Part shown: in pieces, positions 10,398 through 37,081 of the stretch
Position numbering within the stretch: position 1 is the first letter of the stretch
Layout of the letters: each line of letters opens with the position of its first letter
Origin: Gammaproteobacteria bacterium
GTDB taxonomy: Bacteria; Pseudomonadota; Gammaproteobacteria; Pseudomonadales; Azotimanducaceae
Length of the DNA stretch: 64,000 nucleotides
Assembly (NCBI GenBank): GCA_009846005.1
Contig: VXYL01000070.1
Span: 1 to 64,000, forward strand
Reading direction: 5' to 3'
The notes under the pieces: model-generated
Told to the model about the DNA's origin: nothing
The model's input: the letters and a program-made list of their open reading frames with translations, nothing else
The model's database searches: none
Position numbers and translations under genes: made by a program

Positions 10398-10568
10398 CGG
10401 CGGCTTAGGTAAAGGCGTAGCAAACTGATGGTTGATACCGACCGCGGCACCGGGCCGCATAGCCTACCCCATCCCTTGCAAAGGCCGGTGTTCAATGACG
10501 GCCCGGCTCGCACGAACCAACGACGGTTACAATGGTTCCTCGAACGCACGGGGAACGTCCGAACAACA

Positions 10569-11783
10569 ATGACCATCGTCATCGTCGGCGGCGGCCACGC
10601 CGCCGGACAAGCCGCTGCGAGCCTGCGCCAGGAGAAGTACGAGGGCGAGATCCTGATCATCGGCGAAGAGCCGCACATCCCGTACCAACGTCCACCCCTG
10701 TCGAAGCAGTACCTCTCGGGCGAGTACGGTCTCGACCGCGTGCACCTGCGTCCGGCACGGTTCTACGAGAGCAAGGACATCGGCGTCCGTAGTGGCGTAC
10801 GCGTGGAGAACATCGACCCTGCCGACCGGACCGTCGCCTGCAGCGACGGCGCCGAGATCAGCTACGACAAGCTGCTGCTTGCCACCGGCGCGCGGCCGCG
10901 CAGGCTCGCCGCAACGGGTGGCGACCTTCCCGGCGTCCACTACCTGCGCACGATCGCCGACGTCGACGCGATCAAGCAGGACTTCGCGGCGGGGCGGCGC
11001 ATGGCGATCATCGGCGGCGGCTACATCGGACTCGAGGTTGCGGCCATCGCAATCGAGGCGGGACTGATCGTCACGGTCCTGGAGATGGAGGACCGAATCC
11101 TGCAACGCGTGACGACGCCGGCGATGTCGGCCTTCTACGAGGACATCCACACCGAGAAAGGCGTCACCATCCGTACCAGAATGCGCGCCGAGTCGTTCGC
11201 CGGCGACGGTCGTCTGACAGGCGTTGTGTGCGCGGGCGGCGAAGCCGTGCCTGCGGACCTCGCCGTGGTCGGAATCGGAATCGAGCCAAACGTCGAGCTT
11301 GCCGAAGCTGCGGCGCTCGATTGCAGCAACGGCATTGTCGTCGACGAATACACGCGCACCAGCGATCCCAACATTTTCGCGGCGGGCGACTGCACCAACC
11401 ACCCGAACCCGGTCCTCGGTCGGCGGCTGCGGCTCGAATCCGTGCCGAATGCCATGGAGCAGTCGCGGGTCGCGGCAGCGAACCTCGCGGACAACCCCAA
11501 GACATACGCGAACGTGCCCTGGTTCTGGTCCGACCAGTACGATCTCAAACTGCAGATGGTGGGCTTCTCCACCGAGGCGGAGCGGCAGGTCGTGCGCGGC
11601 GACCCCGGAACACGGCAGTTTGCGGTCTTTCACCTCAACGGCGAGACGTTGGTCGCGGCCGATGCGGTGAACAGCGCCCGCGAGTTCATGGTGGCCCGTC
11701 AGCTGGTGGGCAAGCGGGTCGATTCCGGGGCACTCGCCGACCCCAACGTGGAGCTCAAATCCATCCTGCAGACGGCGATCTAG
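10569..11783 (+). CDS. FAD/NAD-dependent ferredoxin or rubredoxin reductase
   Basis: A 404-residue flavoprotein. It has an FAD-binding 'MTIVIVGGGHAAGQAAASL' at the N-terminus, a second NAD(P)H Rossmann site 'MAIIGGGYIGLEVAA' near residue 145, and the FAD-contacting 'IFAAGDCTNHPN' near 275, in the order of BphA4/PdR/AlkT-type oxygenase-coupled reductases. It would pass electrons from NADH to a ferredoxin or rubredoxin. No [2Fe-2S] ferredoxin is adjacent; a rubredoxin is encoded at 43347-43514 in the same window and is a possible partner. A small membrane protein follows 23 bases downstream with an AAGGAG site. Confidence 0.88.
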   Translation: MTIVIVGGGHAAGQAAASLRQEKYEGEILIIGEEPHIPYQRPPLSKQYLSGEYGLDRVHLRPARFYESKDIGVRSGVRVENIDPADRTVACSDGAEISYDKLLLATGARPRRLAATGGDLPGVHYLRTIADVDAIKQDFAAGRRMAIIGGGYIGLEVAAIAIEAGLIVTVLEMEDRILQRVTTPAMSAFYEDIHTEKGVTIRTRMRAESFAGDGRLTGVVCAGGEAVPADLAVVGIGIEPNVELAEAAALDCSNGIVVDEYTRTSDPNIFAAGDCTNHPNPVLGRRLRLESVPNAMEQSRVAAANLADNPKTYANVPWFWSDQYDLKLQMVGFSTEAERQVVRGDPGTRQFAVFHLNGETLVAADAVNSAREFMVARQLVGKRVDSGALADPNVELKSILQTAI

Positions 11784-11806: not shown

Positions 11807-12313
11807 ATGAAAGCATCGCTCGGAATCCTCGTGACGGCCGTCGTGCTGTTCGTCTTCGGTTTCCTCTACTGGGCCGCGAATCCGCTGCCGAACGCGGCGT
11901 TGAACGCCGTGGGGGATGCGGACGCGGCAGCGAGAGCCGTGGGCGAACAGTTCCCCGAAACGGGGATGTACAGCTTCATCGGGTCGGGCCTTAGCGCCAC
12001 CGTTATCGTCAATCACGGGGCGACGGAAGATGTCGACCCGCTGGTGATGGTCTACGGGTTCATCCACTACCTCCTCATTGCGGCCATTCTCGCCGTCGTG
12101 CTGCGCAGTGGCGCGCCGCTCTCCGCGCACGTCCGGCGGGCGTTCATCCTGGGCTTGGCCGCAGTGGTCGTGGTGGAGGGCTCCGACATCGTCTGGTGGG
12201 GGTACACCTGGGGCTGGAAGCTGTGGAGTGCCGTCTACCACGTGCTCGTTTTCGTGATCGGCGCGTTGGTGCTGTCGAAGTTCCTGCCGAGAGATCCCGA
12301 CATCGTCGCCTGA
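11807..12313 (+). CDS. Small hydrophobic membrane protein, unknown function
   Basis: A 168-residue protein beginning with a membrane helix (about residues 4-25, 'ILVTAVVLFVFGFLYW'), then a roughly 50-residue extracytoplasmic loop, then three more helices near residues 82-103, 112-128 and 140-158. The ribosome-binding site AAGGAG lies about 10 bases before the ATG. I do not recognise the family. It is probably cotranscribed with the flavin reductase upstream (23-base gap), so a membrane-anchored redox partner or stress protein is possible, but nothing in the residues shows a cofactor site. Confidence 0.6.
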   Translation: MKASLGILVTAVVLFVFGFLYWAANPLPNAALNAVGDADAAARAVGEQFPETGMYSFIGSGLSATVIVNHGATEDVDPLVMVYGFIHYLLIAAILAVVLRSGAPLSAHVRRAFILGLAAVVVVEGSDIVWWGYTWGWKLWSAVYHVLVFVIGALVLSKFLPRDPDIVA

Positions 12314-12355
12314 TACCGCGTACCGGGCCTTCGACGCCGGTACAGCGCACCGCGC

Positions 12356-12421
12356 GGGCGACCGCAAGGGGCGCCCCTACGGGCCACAGACGGCGTAGGG
12401 GACGGGCTTGTCCCGTCCCGT
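12356..12421. repeat. Palindromic repeat pair (modules A and B)
   Basis: Two palindromic modules lie in the 267-base gap before the CULT gene. Module A (12356-12380) reads 'GGGCGACCGCAAGG' then GGCGCCCCTAC. Module B (12395-12421) reads 'GTAGGGGACGGGC', TTGT, then CCCGTCCCGT. They point away from each other, with CCCCTAC of A facing GTAGGGG of B. Module B recurs without mismatch at 20311-20337 and in reverse at 37055-37081; A recurs at 37003 and 58457. Confidence 0.8.
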
Positions 12422-12580
12422 GTTCCGTGAGCTTGCCGCGGCGCCTCGTCAACCGCCAAAGCGCTCGCCCATCGGCACCGCTTCCCATGCTCGCAGCGCG
12501 ATGGAAGTTGTTGGATTGTTTGGGCAAAATCCAACTTGAGTGCTGCGCGGCGTCCTGTCGAGACGGTTCACGGAGGCGGC

Positions 12581-12970
12581 ATGAGCGACGAACAAGACGA
12601 CCTGAACAGTCCGGAATCCCACCTTGGGGTTGCCGAGGTCGTCGACGAACACACGCGCCCGAAAGAGGGCTTCCTGTTCTGCACAGCCTGTTCGCACTTG
12701 GTCGGCCACGTCGACGACCGCATCGAGGTCAACGGTTCGTTCCTCCACACGTGTACGAACCCCTACGGCTACGTCCACCATTTCGGCTGCCACAGCGACG
12801 CCCACGGCTGCGCCATCAGCGGCGGCCACCACGCCGCCGACAGCTGGTTCAAGGGCTTCAGTTGGCGGTTGGCCAACTGCGGCAATTGCGACACCCACCT
12901 GGGGTGGCTCTTTGAACGGCCAGGCGAGCATTTCTACGGCCTCATTCTCGAGCGCGTCCAGGCGGGTTGA
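12581..12970 (+). CDS. Cereblon-like CULT-domain protein
   Basis: A 129-residue protein that is almost entirely one CULT domain, the thalidomide/cyclic-imide-binding domain of eukaryotic cereblon. Zinc ligands are Cys34, Cys37, Cys100 and Cys103. The aromatic cage is Trp89, Trp95 and Trp109, with the same 6- and 14-residue spacing as human Trp380, Trp386 and Trp400; Asn60-Pro61 matches human Asn351-Pro352 and Ser88 matches Ser379, while human His378 is Asp87 here. The closing 'HFYGL' parallels cereblon 'KFWGL'. GGAGG lies 5 bases before the ATG. No signal peptide, so cytoplasmic. It heads a packed gene run (3-base gap to the HAD gene). Bacterial single-domain CULT proteins are known from Magnetospirillum; their role is not established. 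Confidence 0.93.
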   Translation: MSDEQDDLNSPESHLGVAEVVDEHTRPKEGFLFCTACSHLVGHVDDRIEVNGSFLHTCTNPYGYVHHFGCHSDAHGCAISGGHHAADSWFKGFSWRLANCGNCDTHLGWLFERPGEHFYGLILERVQAG

Positions 12971-12973
12971 TCG

Positions 12974-13669
12974 ATGCCGGATCCAAACGCGAGCGACTAC
13001 GATGTCCTCACGTTCGATTGCTATGGCACGCTGATCGATTGGGGCGCCGGCATCGTGGGGCACCTGCAGCCTCTTCTGCTCGAACGCGACGCCCACGTGA
13101 TCGACGACTTCCTGCTCGAGTTCTTCGCCGAGACCGAACCGGAGGTTCAACAGGACGGCGTCGCCTACGTCGACGTGCTGCGCGAAGTCCTGCGCCGGCT
13201 CGGCGACCGCCTGGCCTTTTCGCCCACCGCCGCGATGCTCGACGCGTTTGCCGAGAGCGCGGGCGACTGGGAGCCGTTCCCGGACACCGTCGAAAGCCTC
13301 GTGCGGCTAGGTGGGAGCGTCGACCTGGCGATCGTCTCCAACGTCGACAACGCGATCTTCGCGAAGACCGCCGCCAAGCTCGGCACCGAGTTCAAACACG
13401 TAATCACCGCCGAGAACGTCGGGGCCTACAAGCCCGATCCCAGGATGTTCGACGCAGCACGCCGCGCCGTCGACGGCGCCCGTATTCTGCACGTCGCCCA
13501 AAGCCTCTACCACGACATCGCGCCGGCGTCGTCGCTGGGCCTAGACACGGTCTGGATTCAACGCGGCAACAACGCCGCCCGCCGGGTCAGTGCGAGACCC
13601 ACGTGGATGTTCGAATCCCTCGCGACGTTCGCCGATGCGTTCGTTGGAACCGGGACCGGAGAAAGCTAG
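12974..13669 (+). CDS. HAD-superfamily hydrolase, haloacid-dehalogenase-like
   Basis: A 231-residue HAD hydrolase. The nucleophile loop 'TFDCYGTLIDW' places Asp15 first and Tyr17 where phosphatases have the second Asp, the pattern of the L-2-haloacid dehalogenase branch. 'AIVSNVDNAIF' supplies motif II, 'KPDPRMFDAA' motif III (Lys near 155) and 'HVAQSLYHDIAPASSLGLDTVWI' motif IV. The substrate may be a haloacid, a phospho-compound or another small molecule. It starts 3 bases after the CULT gene and ends flush against the next GTG, so the four genes 12581-14901 look cotranscribed. Confidence 0.85.
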   Translation: MPDPNASDYDVLTFDCYGTLIDWGAGIVGHLQPLLLERDAHVIDDFLLEFFAETEPEVQQDGVAYVDVLREVLRRLGDRLAFSPTAAMLDAFAESAGDWEPFPDTVESLVRLGGSVDLAIVSNVDNAIFAKTAAKLGTEFKHVITAENVGAYKPDPRMFDAARRAVDGARILHVAQSLYHDIAPASSLGLDTVWIQRGNNAARRVSARPTWMFESLATFADAFVGTGTGES

Positions 13670-14209
13670 GTGGCCGCAGGCGAGGAAACACGCCGCGCCT
13701 CGATCGAACTTGCCAAGGAGGACATGCACTTCTCGGCCGCGCACTTCACGATCTTCTCGGCAAACCGGCGCGAGAACCTGCATGGCCACAACTTCTTCGT
13801 CGAGGCGCGGGCCGAGGGACCGATCAATTCCAACGGCCTGTGTTTCGACTACACCCTGCTGAAGGCCCGGCTAAGGGCGCTGTGCGACGTCCTGGACGAA
13901 ACCCTGCTCATCGCCGCGCGGTCGCCGCATCTCGAGATCCAGGAGGAACACGACGAGGTCGTCGTCGCGTTTGCGGATGAAACGCTCCGCTTCCAGCATC
14001 GCGATGTGAAACTCCTGCCGATCCGCAACGTCACCGTCGAGGAACTGGCGCATTGGTTCACCGACACCCTGACCCGCGACGACTGCTTCGGTTCGCTATC
14101 CGTCGAATCGCTCACCGTGCGAGTGTCGTCCGGTCCGGGACAGTGGGCCGAGACAACCTGGCAATCCAATGCCAACGTGCATGCGACCGGCTTGCGAGAT
14201 CCGCTGTGA
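13670..14209 (+). CDS. 6-pyruvoyl-tetrahydropterin synthase family protein (ExxHGH type)
   Basis: A 179-residue T-fold enzyme. Zinc ligands His25 ('FSAAHF'), His38 and His40 ('LHGHNF') are present. The catalytic Cys of QueD/PTPS (CxxxHGH) is missing and Glu35 forms ExxHGH instead, the motif reported for PTPS-III proteins that replace dihydroneopterin aldolase (FolB) in folate synthesis. Glu near 158-161 ('VESLTVRVSSGPGQWAE') closes the pterin pocket. The GTG start is directly after the HAD stop codon. Its partners downstream are a short-chain reductase and a queuosine-precursor-type transporter, so a role in deazapurine rather than folate metabolism remains possible. Confidence 0.82.
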   Translation: MAAGEETRRASIELAKEDMHFSAAHFTIFSANRRENLHGHNFFVEARAEGPINSNGLCFDYTLLKARLRALCDVLDETLLIAARSPHLEIQEEHDEVVVAFADETLRFQHRDVKLLPIRNVTVEELAHWFTDTLTRDDCFGSLSVESLTVRVSSGPGQWAETTWQSNANVHATGLRDPL

Positions 14210-14901
14210 AGCTCGCCATCGTCTCGGGAGCGAGCGCGGGCATCGGCCTCGCAACCGCAGGACGTTTCCTCGACGCCGGCTACCGGGTCGTGAATCTGTC
14301 GAGGCGTGCCTGTCCCCTGCCCGGGATCGTCGATCTGCGTTGCGATCTGTCGGACCCTGATTTCCCGAACACCCTCGGACCCCAACTCACGCCCCACCTC
14401 GAGGCGGCTAGCGAAACCGCGCTAATCCACAACGCCTCGCGTCTCGCCAACGATACCGCCGACAACACGTCGAGCGACGACCTGCGCGCGGTCATCGAGG
14501 TCAACGTGGTGGGGATCAACTCCCTCAACCGGTTGGCGATTCCGCATTTGGGCGACGGTTCGTGCGTCCTTTTTGTCGCGTCCACGTTGGCCGAGAAGGC
14601 GGTGCCCGGCAGCTATTCCTATGTACTCACCAAACACGCCCAGGTCGGCATGATGCGTGCCCTATGCCAAGATCTCGCCGGCACGGGCATACACACCGCG
14701 TGCATCTGTCCCGGCTTCACCGATACCGAGATGCTGCGCGCCCACGTCCCGCCCGAGGCTCTGGATGCGGTGCGCGGCATGTCGGCGTACAACCGACTGA
14801 TCGATCCCGGCGAGATCGCCGGAACCCTGTACTGGGCAGCGACGGCACCCGTCATCAACGGCAGCGTTGTCCACGCGAATCTCGGCCAGATAGAGAGGTA
14901 A
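14206..14901 (+). CDS. Short-chain dehydrogenase/reductase
   Basis: A 231-residue classical SDR. It has the cofactor motif 'SGASAGIG' (residues 7-14), catalytic Ser126, Tyr139 and Lys143 ('YVLTK'), and 'CICPGFTDTEM' after the active site. 'LSRR' after beta-2 favours NADP(H). GTG 14206 overlaps the pterin-synthase stop as GTGA, which implies coupled translation and perhaps a shared pathway, for example reduction of a pterin intermediate as in sepiapterin or dihydromonapterin reductases; this is inference from position. A further 51 open codons upstream overlap the preceding gene and were rejected. Confidence 0.85.
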   Translation: MKLAIVSGASAGIGLATAGRFLDAGYRVVNLSRRACPLPGIVDLRCDLSDPDFPNTLGPQLTPHLEAASETALIHNASRLANDTADNTSSDDLRAVIEVNVVGINSLNRLAIPHLGDGSCVLFVASTLAEKAVPGSYSYVLTKHAQVGMMRALCQDLAGTGIHTACICPGFTDTEMLRAHVPPEALDAVRGMSAYNRLIDPGEIAGTLYWAATAPVINGSVVHANLGQIER

Positions 14902-14992
14902 CGGAACGCCGGCCGTCGAGGCACGGCGACAATCGGCATCGACAGTTGACTCGAATGAGAGCGTTTCGCCACGTTTAGGGAGAGCAGTCATC

Positions 14993-15784
14993 ATGGCGGA
15001 TTACAGAAGGCGGCGGCAGCGGGTGTTCCTGGTACTCGCGGGCGTATTCCTCGGTACGCTCGCGATGCTGAACATCCTGGGCATCAGCCGGTTCATCGAC
15101 CTGTCGTTCAACGTCTTCGGGCTGGAGATACCGATGGTGGTCGCGGTGGGCGTCCTGCCTTACCCCGTCACCTTTATCTGCACCGACCTCATCAGCGAAC
15201 TCTACGGTCGCAAGCGGGCCACGGAGGTCGTCTGGGTCGGCCTGCTGCTCAACGTGTGGGTCGTGTTCCTGCTCTGGATCGGCGGCGCCTTGCCGGGGTT
15301 CGAGCCGGTCGATCCAGCTAGCGGCGAACTGCTACGGGACGAGGCGGGCCGGCTGCCCGTGTTCTTCGAGATCCGCGAGTACGCATTCGCGGCGGTCACG
15401 GCGTCCATGATCGCCTACCTCTTCGCGCAATGGTGCGACGTGCAGATGTTCCACTTCTGGAAGTGGCTTACCGGCGGTCGGCACCTGTGGTTGAGAAACA
15501 ACGGTTCCACACTGGTCAGCCAGCTCGTGGACACCATCGCCGTGATCCTGATCACCCACTTCTGGGCGAGCGGCTTGCCCATCGACGAGGCGGCGGCGCT
15601 GTGGCCCCAGTTGCTGACGTTCATCGCGTCCGGGTACGTCTTCAAGGTCGTCGTGGCGCTGGTCGACACCGGTCCCATCTACGCGCTTGTGGCGTGGCTG
15701 CGACCGTTCCTCGGCATTGCCCGGAACGAGGAGATCGGTCCCGGCGATGATCCGGTGATGGCGGCGAGCGATGCGCGCTACTGA
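14993..15784 (+). CDS. yhhQ: Queuosine precursor transporter (QPTR/YhhQ family)
   Basis: A 263-residue membrane protein of the VUT/DUF165 family with about six helices. Landmarks are 'LAMLNILGISRFIDL', 'VLPYPVTFICTDLISELYGRKRA' near residue 58, 'AQWCDVQMFHFWKWLTGGRHLWLRNNGST' near 145 and 'SQLVDTIAVILITHF' near 176. These match E. coli YhhQ, which imports preQ0/preQ1 for queuosine tRNA modification. It is 91 bases after the SDR gene with no clear terminator between. The pterin-synthase-family gene two positions upstream fits a deazapurine theme, but queC/queE/queF are not in the window. Its 3' end overlaps the convergent luciferase-like gene by 7 bases. Confidence 0.85.
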   Translation: MADYRRRRQRVFLVLAGVFLGTLAMLNILGISRFIDLSFNVFGLEIPMVVAVGVLPYPVTFICTDLISELYGRKRATEVVWVGLLLNVWVVFLLWIGGALPGFEPVDPASGELLRDEAGRLPVFFEIREYAFAAVTASMIAYLFAQWCDVQMFHFWKWLTGGRHLWLRNNGSTLVSQLVDTIAVILITHFWASGLPIDEAAALWPQLLTFIASGYVFKVVVALVDTGPIYALVAWLRPFLGIARNEEIGPGDDPVMAASDARY

Positions 15785-20310: not shown

Positions 20311-20337
20311 GTAGGGGACGGGCTTGTCCCGTCCCGT
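20311..20337. repeat. Palindromic repeat, module B
   Basis: The 27-base module 'GTAGGGGACGGGC', TTGT, CCCGTCCCGT is identical here to 12395-12421. It lies just upstream of the chosen protease start. A decayed module A-like sequence ('GTTAGGGTCGCCCC') follows at about 20391-20404. Read in the protease frame the copy encodes DGTSPSPT, a peptide common where such repeats are translated. Confidence 0.8.
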
Positions 20338-37006: not shown

Positions 37007-37081
37007 GGGCGACCCTTGTGGTCGCCCGTGCCAGATATCCCGGTTGCCTCGGCACCGGGACGGGACAAGCCCGTCCCCTAC
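37003..37081. repeat. Composite palindromic repeat (module A + reversed module B)
   Basis: Module A 'GTAGGGGCGACCC', TTGT, GGTCGCCCGT (37003-37029) and, after a 25-base spacer, module B reversed ('GGGACGGGACAAGC' then CCGTCCCCTAC, ending 37081). The element begins with GTAGGGG and ends with CCCCTAC, so it has inverted ends. It supplies the stop codon of the gene on the left and runs to the third codon position before the conserved glycosyltransferase sequence on the right. Confidence 0.82.

What the first reader, a model, noticed from the sequence alone, without database searches (positions are those of the whole stretch)
12581..15784. Cereblon-type CULT domain protein in a packed operon with HAD, pterin-synthase and reductase genes
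Seen: Cys34/37/100/103 and Trp89/95/109 reproduce the zinc site and aromatic cage of cereblon with the same Trp spacing (6 and 14) and Cys-to-Trp distance (9); Asn-Pro and Ser-Trp-Phe of the pocket are kept, while the human His378 position is Asp. Gaps to the next genes are 3, 0 and -4 bases. Known: the cereblon CULT domain binds cyclic imides and a small bacterial CULT protein is known from Magnetospirillum, without an established function. Inference: the operon may sense or process a cyclic imide or pyrimidine-like small molecule, with the HAD hydrolase, ExxHGH pterin-fold enzyme and SDR acting on related compounds, or may deal with cyclised protein C-termini.
Basis: partly seen in the sequence, partly recalled or inferred. 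Interest (0 to 1): 0.78.

Follow-up and report, generated by a model that had tools for sequence, protein, structure and literature searches.

The report
Bacterial cereblon domain paired with ring-opening hydrolase
A bacterium carries a small free-standing version of the pocket by which thalidomide binds human cereblon, and across its family this gene travels with a hydrolase of a kind known to open a nitrogen-containing ring and usually sits next to a vitamin (folate) gene, which gives a testable clue to what this pocket does in bacteria.

Summary
Window 12581-12970 encodes a 129-residue CULT-only protein (best PDB hit M. gryphiswaldense MsCI4, E 3e-19; its predicted fold matches MsCI4) with zinc cysteines, three-Trp cage and Asp at the human His378 position. 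The packed order CULT-HAD-PTPS-SDR is real; a Vut_1/queuosine-precursor-type transporter follows. It is conserved: of 150 sampled family genomes 74 have CULT; PTPS lies co-directionally 3' of CULT in 55 of 68 informative loci (19 of 24 genera); this HAD occurs in 46 genomes, 45 of them CULT-positive. The HAD is closest to L-azetidine-2-carboxylate hydrolase, a ring-opening enzyme. The PTPS carries the folate PTPS-III motif and FolB was found in none of 11 genus genomes, so PTPS-SDR is probably housekeeping. In one lineage CULT-HAD instead sits behind an Anbu proteasome homologue (7 of 10 loci). Outside this family CULT has other neighbours. Best reading: CULT and HAD are a binder plus ring-opening-hydrolase pair acting on a cyclic nitrogen compound, lodged beside a folate unit. 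The pairing is well supported; ligand and mechanism are inferred. The paper searches listed none on a bacterial CULT operon.

The parts
10566..11783 (+). RED: ferredoxin--NAD reductase-type flavoprotein, upstream neighbour, same strand in relatives
   Evidence: Pfam Pyr_redox_2 and Reductase_C; in 46 of 65 family loci by clustering. Probably not part of the CULT unit
11807..12313 (+). UPmem: small hydrophobic protein, no Pfam family at E 0.01; 9 of the 11 loci L001-L011, and weak matches in 2 of the 60 loci L128-L187
   Evidence: 0 families
12400..12418 (+). perfect 19-base repeat with inverted symmetry between UPmem and CULT, repeated elsewhere in the window
12581..12970 (+). CULT-only protein (129 aa): zinc site C34/C37/C100/C103, aromatic cage W89/W95/W109, N60-P61-x-G63, D87 at the human His378 position
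12974..13669 (+). HAD hydrolase closest to L-azetidine-2-carboxylate hydrolase; nucleophile D15, K153; Tyr, not Asp, at D+2
13670..14209 (+). PTPS-fold protein with PTPS-III (folate) signature E35-N-L-H-G-H40; only Pfam PTPS match of the genome
14206..14901 (+). short-chain dehydrogenase/reductase, paired with this PTPS in many Pseudomonadales, with and without CULT
14993..15784 (+). Vut_1 / queuosine precursor transporter family membrane protein
   Evidence: NCBIfam TIGR00697 121 bits, cut-off 51; Pfam Vut_1

Best explanation
CULT and the HAD next to it are one functional pair: the CULT protein holds a small cyclic amide or imide (lactam-type N-H/C=O face) in its three-Trp cage, and the HAD uses Asp15, helped by Lys153, to attack a ring carbon of a nitrogen heterocycle and open the ring by hydrolysis. 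The pair senses, traps or clears such a compound (or a ring formed at the end of a damaged peptide). It is expressed together with PTPS-III and an SDR, a folate-branch unit that needs neither of them. Shown: identity and conserved pocket of CULT; HAD kinship and catalytic residues; conserved adjacency and co-occurrence. Inferred: that CULT binds such ligands in these bacteria, that HAD opens a ring, and that the two act on one compound.
For: HAD (E <= 1e-50) occurs in 46 of 150 family genomes, one match each, and 45 of the 46 have CULT (CULT 74 of 150; Fisher p 2.5e-17, not corrected for kinship); by genus all 10 HAD genera have CULT, which 24 of 37 genera have (p 0.006). HAD begins within 150 bases of CULT in 42 of 74 loci, including loci with no PTPS beside them: 10 of 10 of genus g4 have HAD and none a PTPS in view; for two of these genomes, G105 and G157, the PTPS-SDR-VUT unit was seen on another contig. 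HAD presence changes at least 10 times on the poorly resolved CULT tree, yet HAD was found without CULT once. HAD: nearest solved relative is L-azetidine-2-carboxylate hydrolase 3smv (phmmer 1.7e-46; profile 9e-60 against 1.5e-16 for L-2-haloacid dehalogenase; Foldseek ranks 1, 3, 4 at 41% identity); D15 and K153 align with D12 and K152 of 3smv, the numbers mutated in 8yvw, 8hp6 and 8hp7. MsCI4 structures hold thalidomide, deoxyuridine and valerolactam, a humanised one a dihydrouracil compound (PDB titles).
Against: 29 of 74 CULT-positive genomes lack the HAD at E <= 1e-50, two of them with a HAD in broken pieces, so CULT works without it. One genome (G353) has HAD at the same place and no CULT match. 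None of the 39 CULT loci of other Pseudomonadales families has a HAD match over 90 bits, nor any of the 20 loci (about 3.3 kb each at most) of the rest of the phylum. Kinship inflates the co-occurrence. Distance correlations do not single out the pair: CULT-HAD 0.89, but HAD-PTPS 0.89, HAD-RED 0.84, CULT-PTPS 0.81, CULT-RED 0.76. No compound shared by the CULT ligand set and azetidine-type substrates is known to me. The region as a whole keeps its order (RED, flavin monooxygenase, HPPK), so part of the adjacency is plain synteny.
Confidence: 0.36

Rival explanations
1. CULT serves the folate branch: it binds a (dihydro)pterin or related pyrimidinone and protects, delivers or reports it for PTPS-III and the SDR; Asp87 would pair with the ring N-H and amino group.
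For: PTPS follows CULT on the same strand within 4 kb in 55 of 68 informative loci, 19 of 24 genera, directly (<300 bases) in 15; the PTPS is the only PTPS match and FolB was not found (11 of 11 each); HPPK lies nearby in 11 of the 60 loci L128-L187; Asp87 in 68 of 73.
Against: The PTPS-SDR pair is usual without CULT (16 of 18), and all 10 family genomes of the order sample have the PTPS although 5 of them lack CULT. In g4 CULT-HAD has no PTPS beside it, and 7 of 10 keep Asp87. In two one-contig genomes (G276, G314) CULT-HAD-SDR-VUT stands without any PTPS match in between. Outside the family CULT and PTPS do not co-occur beyond chance (11 of 39, p 0.11). Cytidine and thymidine do not bind MsCI4 (PMC4449219, passages).
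Confidence: 0.17
2. CULT is a reader of damaged proteins with C-terminal cyclic imides, as proposed for human cereblon, and hands them to a partner: a ring-opening hydrolase (HAD) or a proteasome-like protease (Anbu).
For: Anbu lies directly 5' of CULT-HAD, same strand, in 7 of the 10 g4 loci (L178, L180-L185); one of them, L184, was compared with PDB and matches solved Anbu proteins at 9e-52 to 2e-69. Cereblon's C-terminal cyclic imide role is in the starts of the abstracts of PMC11974815 and PMC12117711 (listing).
Against: The Anbu link arose once on the tree and in one of the 7 (L182, G374) Anbu is split between two frames. CULT and Anbu do not co-occur in the family (42 of 74 against 36 of 76, p 0.26). 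The other 3 g4 loci have a TauD-like gene there (Pfam on one). A free 129-residue CULT has no evident protease- or ligase-binding part.
Confidence: 0.12
3. No functional link: CULT has a general role of its own (for instance on uridine-type ligands or RNA modification), and the neighbours are kept by regional synteny.
For: CULT occurs in many settings: in 39 loci of other Pseudomonadales families a pseudouridine synthase gene is near in 14, a RimO-like gene in 12, a divergent methyltransferase in 11; 7 deltaproteobacterial loci have none of the window's neighbours. Flanking genes RED, LLM and HPPK are kept too, and HAD distances follow PTPS and RED as well as CULT.
Against: The near-exclusive co-occurrence of HAD with CULT (45 of 46) and CULT-HAD together without PTPS in g4 are not expected from synteny alone.
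Confidence: 0.27

Closest known systems
MsCI4 (MGR_0879), CULT protein of Magnetospirillum gryphiswaldense (PMC4287342, PMC4449219: passages read)
   Same: CULT-only bacterial protein, same zinc site, cage and NPxG motif; 31-36% identity in the structural alignments listed
   Different: Asp instead of Phe at the human His378 position; the HAD-PTPS-SDR neighbourhood was seen here only in the window's family
Human cereblon (CRBN), thalidomide-binding domain
   Same: aromatic cage and zinc site with the same spacings (human numbers recalled)
   Different: no LON domain or DDB1-binding part, so no E3 role as such
L-azetidine-2-carboxylate hydrolase of Pseudomonas sp. A2C and AzhA of Aspergillus nidulans (PMC8016842: passages read)
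   Same: HAD fold, DCYGTLIDW motif, catalytic Asp and Lys; 41% identity to the solved L-azetidine-2-carboxylate hydrolase (3smv) in the structural alignment
   Different: CULT-linked; substrate unknown; an export signal was not looked for
PTPS-III (folate FolB-bypass enzyme; PMC5041015: passages read)
   Same: ExxHGH motif, no QueD-type CxxxHGH, FolB not found, HPPK nearby in some relatives
   Different: the His after the conserved Asp is Glu77; paired with an SDR
Anbu, proteasome homologue (PMC5666114: passages read)
   Same: the protein beside CULT-HAD in 7 g4 loci
   Different: no ATP-grasp, Alpha-E or transglutaminase gene was recognised beside it there by eye; not searched with profiles

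Membership tests
CULT domain | two CxxC motifs for zinc | tested here: met
   C34/37, C100/103; 73 of 73 readable rows of 74
[quoted passage not shown]
   W89, W95, W109; 73 of 73 readable rows of 74
CULT domain | NPxG hairpin motif | tested here: met
   N60-P61-Y62-G63; in the 74 rows N 73, P 74, G 69
CULT domain | beta-tent fold | tested here: met
   predicted model only
CULT domain | binds thalidomide/uridine-type ligands | not testable with these tools
   needs purified protein
Cereblon (E3 substrate receptor) | LON domain and DDB1-binding segment | tested here: not met
   129 aa, CULT only
L-azetidine-2-carboxylate hydrolase | closer to it than to L-2-haloacid dehalogenases | tested here: met
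   profile E 9e-60 for 3smv against 1.5e-16 for 1zrm; Foldseek ranks 1, 3, 4, ranks 2, 5, 6 being 8hp5-7, filed as (S)-2-haloacid dehalogenase but trapped with 4-amino-2-hydroxybutanoic acid in 8hp7
L-azetidine-2-carboxylate hydrolase | catalytic Asp12 and Lys152 | tested here: met
   D15, K153, invariant in 13 of 13
L-azetidine-2-carboxylate hydrolase | hydrolyses azetidine-2-carboxylate | not testable with these tools
   assay needed
Haloacid dehalogenase type II (NCBIfam TIGR01428) | reaches the curated cut-off | tested here: not met
   125.1 of 125.4 bits, just short
PTPS-III | ExxHGH without QueD Cys | tested here: met
   E35, H38, G39, H40 in 12 of 12
PTPS-III | stands in for a missing FolB | tested here: met
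   FolB 0 of 11, control 10 of 14; PTPS 11 of 11; complementation not tested
PTPS-III | His after the conserved Asp | tested here: not met
   Asp76-Glu77 in 12 of 12; Plasmodium PTPS has Asp-His. That this His is catalytic is recalled
FolM-type dihydrofolate reductase (SDR) | needed because FolA is missing | tested here: not met
   DHFR_1 in 11 of 11
Queuosine precursor transporter (VUT) | over curated cut-off | tested here: met
   121 against 51 bits

The most novel reading that the evidence does not exclude
The free bacterial CULT protein and its azetidine-hydrolase-type HAD are a bind-and-open system for cyclic nitrogen lesions or toxins, in one lineage coupled to the proteasome homologue Anbu. 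This would be a bacterial counterpart of what cereblon does for cyclic imides in animals, and would reveal the ancestral job of the thalidomide pocket.
Probability: 0.17. Interest if true: 0.88.

Novelty: new variant of a known kind. Interest (0 to 1): 0.6.

Why it matters
The natural function of the cereblon pocket, the target of thalidomide and of many protein-degrader drugs, is settled only in part, and I found no function in print for bacterial CULT proteins. A conserved partner enzyme with a known type of chemistry narrows the search for the native ligand to cyclic nitrogen compounds and gives clean genetics: two adjacent genes, the second almost never present without the first.

Tried and rejected
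Pfam family Yippee-Mis18 (PF03226) as a probe for CULT found nothing even in the window's genome or in 14 controls, so it says nothing on absence; own alignments were used. SDR as the only dihydrofolate reductase: rejected, FolA present in 11 of 11. PTPS as QueD: no CxxxHGH. HAD as phosphatase: Tyr at D+2, and nearer to azetidine-carboxylate hydrolase. Anbu as a general CULT partner: rejected at family level. Distance correlation as proof of a CULT-HAD pair: rejected, since HAD correlates as well with PTPS; my confidence in the best explanation went from 0.38 to 0.36, and in the no-link rival from 0.25 to 0.27, on rereading this. Promoter and terminator scan of 12280-15100: none found, no evidence against transcription in G+C-rich DNA. 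The order sample is 244 genomes, the family sample 150, the phylum sample 398, each drawn from a larger group. Docking was not possible.

Weak points of method: gene calls in relatives are profile matches on stop-to-stop frames, not annotated genes; 9 loci of the window's genus reach only about 1.5 kb beyond CULT; some of L001-L011 may be the same species as G-handles, so they were not added to the family counts; two HAD matches (L134, L139) are broken in pieces and were counted as HAD but not; G366 has its HAD on another contig than its CULT; of the 53 PTPS-positive order genomes only 30 loci were returned and scanned. In one search the states of L172, L177 and L187 were left out as their contigs end near CULT, and 25 of 58 branches are open. 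Names such as RimO for clustered neighbours are recalled from Pfam content.
Full report
What is there. The protein at 12581-12970 is a bona fide CULT-only protein. phmmer finds the Magnetospirillum protein MsCI4 at 3.3e-19 and animal cereblons at about 4e-9. The predicted structure (mean pLDDT 82.6; under 50 only at residues 1-19; block 81-90, with part of the pocket, at 78) is matched best by MsCI4 structures. Of 74 family rows 73 can be read at the pocket (L157 is a fragment): the four cysteines and three tryptophans are unchanged in 73 of 73, while the position of human His378 is Asp in 68 and His in 5.

Distribution. CULT was found in 44 of 244 sampled genomes of the order, 74 of 150 of the window's family and 21 of 398 of the phylum. 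A direct scan of named genomes gave 18 loci: 11 gammaproteobacterial and 7 deltaproteobacterial, mostly Desulfobacterales. In all 11 gammaproteobacterial loci the order is CULT-HAD-PTPS-SDR-VUT, RED being seen in 10 and UPmem in 9. None of the 7 others has tblastn matches to these neighbours.

Conservation of the neighbourhood in the family. For all 74 CULT-positive genomes the DNA around CULT was scanned with profiles. Of 68 loci with at least 2.5 kb downstream or a PTPS in view, 55 have the PTPS on the same strand within 4 kb; these are 19 of 24 genera. In 32 the HAD stands between; in 15 PTPS follows CULT within 300 bases. Of the 13 others, 9 are of genus g4, where CULT-HAD stands without PTPS (in all 10 g4 loci; for G105 and G157 the PTPS-SDR-VUT unit was seen on another contig), two are L149 and L151, one-contig genomes with CULT-HAD-SDR-VUT and no PTPS match, and two are L175 and L179, with neither HAD nor PTPS. 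Median CULT identity among 65 loci is 47%, minimum 27%, so the association is old. Part of it is regional synteny: of 65 loci RED is seen in 46, a luciferase-type monooxygenase in 31, and a methyladenine-glycosylase gene on the other strand in 33.

CULT and HAD. The HAD subfamily (E <= 1e-50) is in 46 of 150 family genomes, one match each. 45 of these have CULT; 1 of the 76 CULT-negative genomes has it (p 2.5e-17, uncorrected). By genus it is 10 of 10 (p 0.006). The exception, G353, has HAD between RED and PTPS and no CULT match. In the order sample only two genomes outside the family have a match at E <= 1e-30 (4.5e-50 and 6e-35), and their loci show no CULT. On the CULT tree HAD presence changes at least 10 times, PTPS adjacency 4, Anbu once; three rows were left out of the first two counts and the tree is poorly resolved. 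So CULT can do without HAD, but CULT is nearly always there when HAD is. Against a special tie: distances of HAD correlate with PTPS (0.89) and RED (0.84) about as well as with CULT (0.89).

What the HAD is. By sequence and fold its nearest solved relatives are L-azetidine-2-carboxylate hydrolase (3smv, 8ywo, 8yvw) and 8hp5-7, filed as (S)-2-haloacid dehalogenase, of which 8hp7 holds 4-amino-2-hydroxybutanoic acid. Asp12 and Lys152, named in the titles of mutant structures, correspond to D15 and K153 here, invariant in 13 of 13. Passages of PMC8016842 describe hydrolysis of azetidine-2-carboxylate to 2-hydroxy-4-aminobutyrate by the Pseudomonas enzyme. A ring-opening hydrolysis is the natural expectation; the substrate is not known.

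What PTPS, SDR and VUT are. The PTPS has ExxHGH, the published signature of PTPS-III, which bypasses FolB in folate synthesis (PMC5041015, passages). FolB was found in 0 of 11 genus genomes (control 10 of 14), PTPS once in each of 11, TGT in 9 of 11, DHFR in 11 of 11. HPPK (folK) lies a few genes away in 11 of the 60 loci L128-L187; it was not matched in the window. Of 30 PTPS loci scanned (of 53 PTPS-positive order genomes), 18 lie in genomes without CULT, and 16 of these have the SDR near. PTPS and SDR are therefore best seen as a core folate-branch unit, and VUT as a queuosine-precursor-type transporter. One unusual point: the residue after Asp76 is Glu, not His.

Anbu. In 7 of 10 g4 loci a proteasome homologue of the Anbu family (L184 against PDB: E down to 2e-69) is the gene directly before CULT on the same strand; in one of these (L182) it is split between two frames. 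In the 3 others a TauD-like gene precedes. Anbu occurs in 78 of 150 family genomes, in the window's genome on another contig than CULT, and independently of CULT (42 of 74 against 36 of 76). This is a hint, no more, for a link to protein turnover.

Other settings. In 39 CULT loci of other Pseudomonadales families no HAD, PTPS, SDR, VUT, RED or Anbu match above 90 bits was found. Instead a pseudouridine synthase gene lies on the same strand in 14, a RimO-like gene in 12, a divergent methyltransferase gene in 11, DUF2244 in 9, and rhodanese and some other genes in 8. CULT therefore does not need the present partners, and its general role may be broader.

Literature. Searches for CULT domain or cereblon with Magnetospirillum, bacterial, operon, cyclic imide, MsCI4, haloacid dehalogenase, pyruvoyl tetrahydropterin and azetidine terms listed no paper whose title or abstract start concerns a bacterial CULT operon or partner; the listings were cut at 20 and 12 papers, and the library holds open-licence PMC papers only.

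Verdict. The finding is real and better supported than its author could know. The strongest new result is the CULT-HAD pair with an azetidine-hydrolase-type HAD; the folate identity of PTPS makes the idea that all enzymes act on CULT's ligand less likely. Mechanism remains inferred.

Noticed in passing
window 12400-12418, 20316-20334, 37058-37076: A 19-base element with inverted symmetry, GGACGGGCTTGTCCCGTCC, occurs three times without mismatch (0.04 expected); a REP-like intergenic element.
   Followed up: no
window 13670-14209, 14993-15784: The genus has TGT (9 of 11) and a queuosine-precursor-type transporter, while its only PTPS match lacks the QueD cysteine: queuosine precursors are probably taken up, not made. 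QueC, QueE and QueF were not searched.
   Followed up: partly
window 13895-13900 (Asp76-Glu77 of the PTPS): The Asp-His pair seen in Plasmodium PTPS is Asp-Glu in 12 of 12 aligned rows, besides the Cys-to-Glu change; active-site chemistry may be unusual.
   Followed up: no
L178, L180-L185: Anbu proteasome homologue directly before CULT-HAD; its usual ATP-grasp, Alpha-E and transglutaminase neighbours were not recognised there by eye; in L182 it is split between two frames.
   Followed up: partly
L149 and L151 (G276, G314): CULT-HAD-SDR-VUT without any PTPS match in between, in one-contig genomes; where their folate PTPS step comes from was not searched.
   Followed up: no
L053-L068, L267-L289: In other Pseudomonadales families CULT lies near rRNA/protein modification genes: pseudouridine synthase 14, RimO-like 12, methyltransferase 11 of 39 loci; suggestive because MsCI4 binds uridine.
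   Followed up: partly
L264 (G353:C4): The single sampled family genome with the HAD but no CULT match: HAD sits directly behind RED, and TauD-like, VanY-like and CoA-transferase-like genes (names by eye) lie between HAD and PTPS.
   Followed up: partly
L012 and L018: Two of seven deltaproteobacterial CULT genes follow a similar small gene of 136-145 residues.
   Followed up: no
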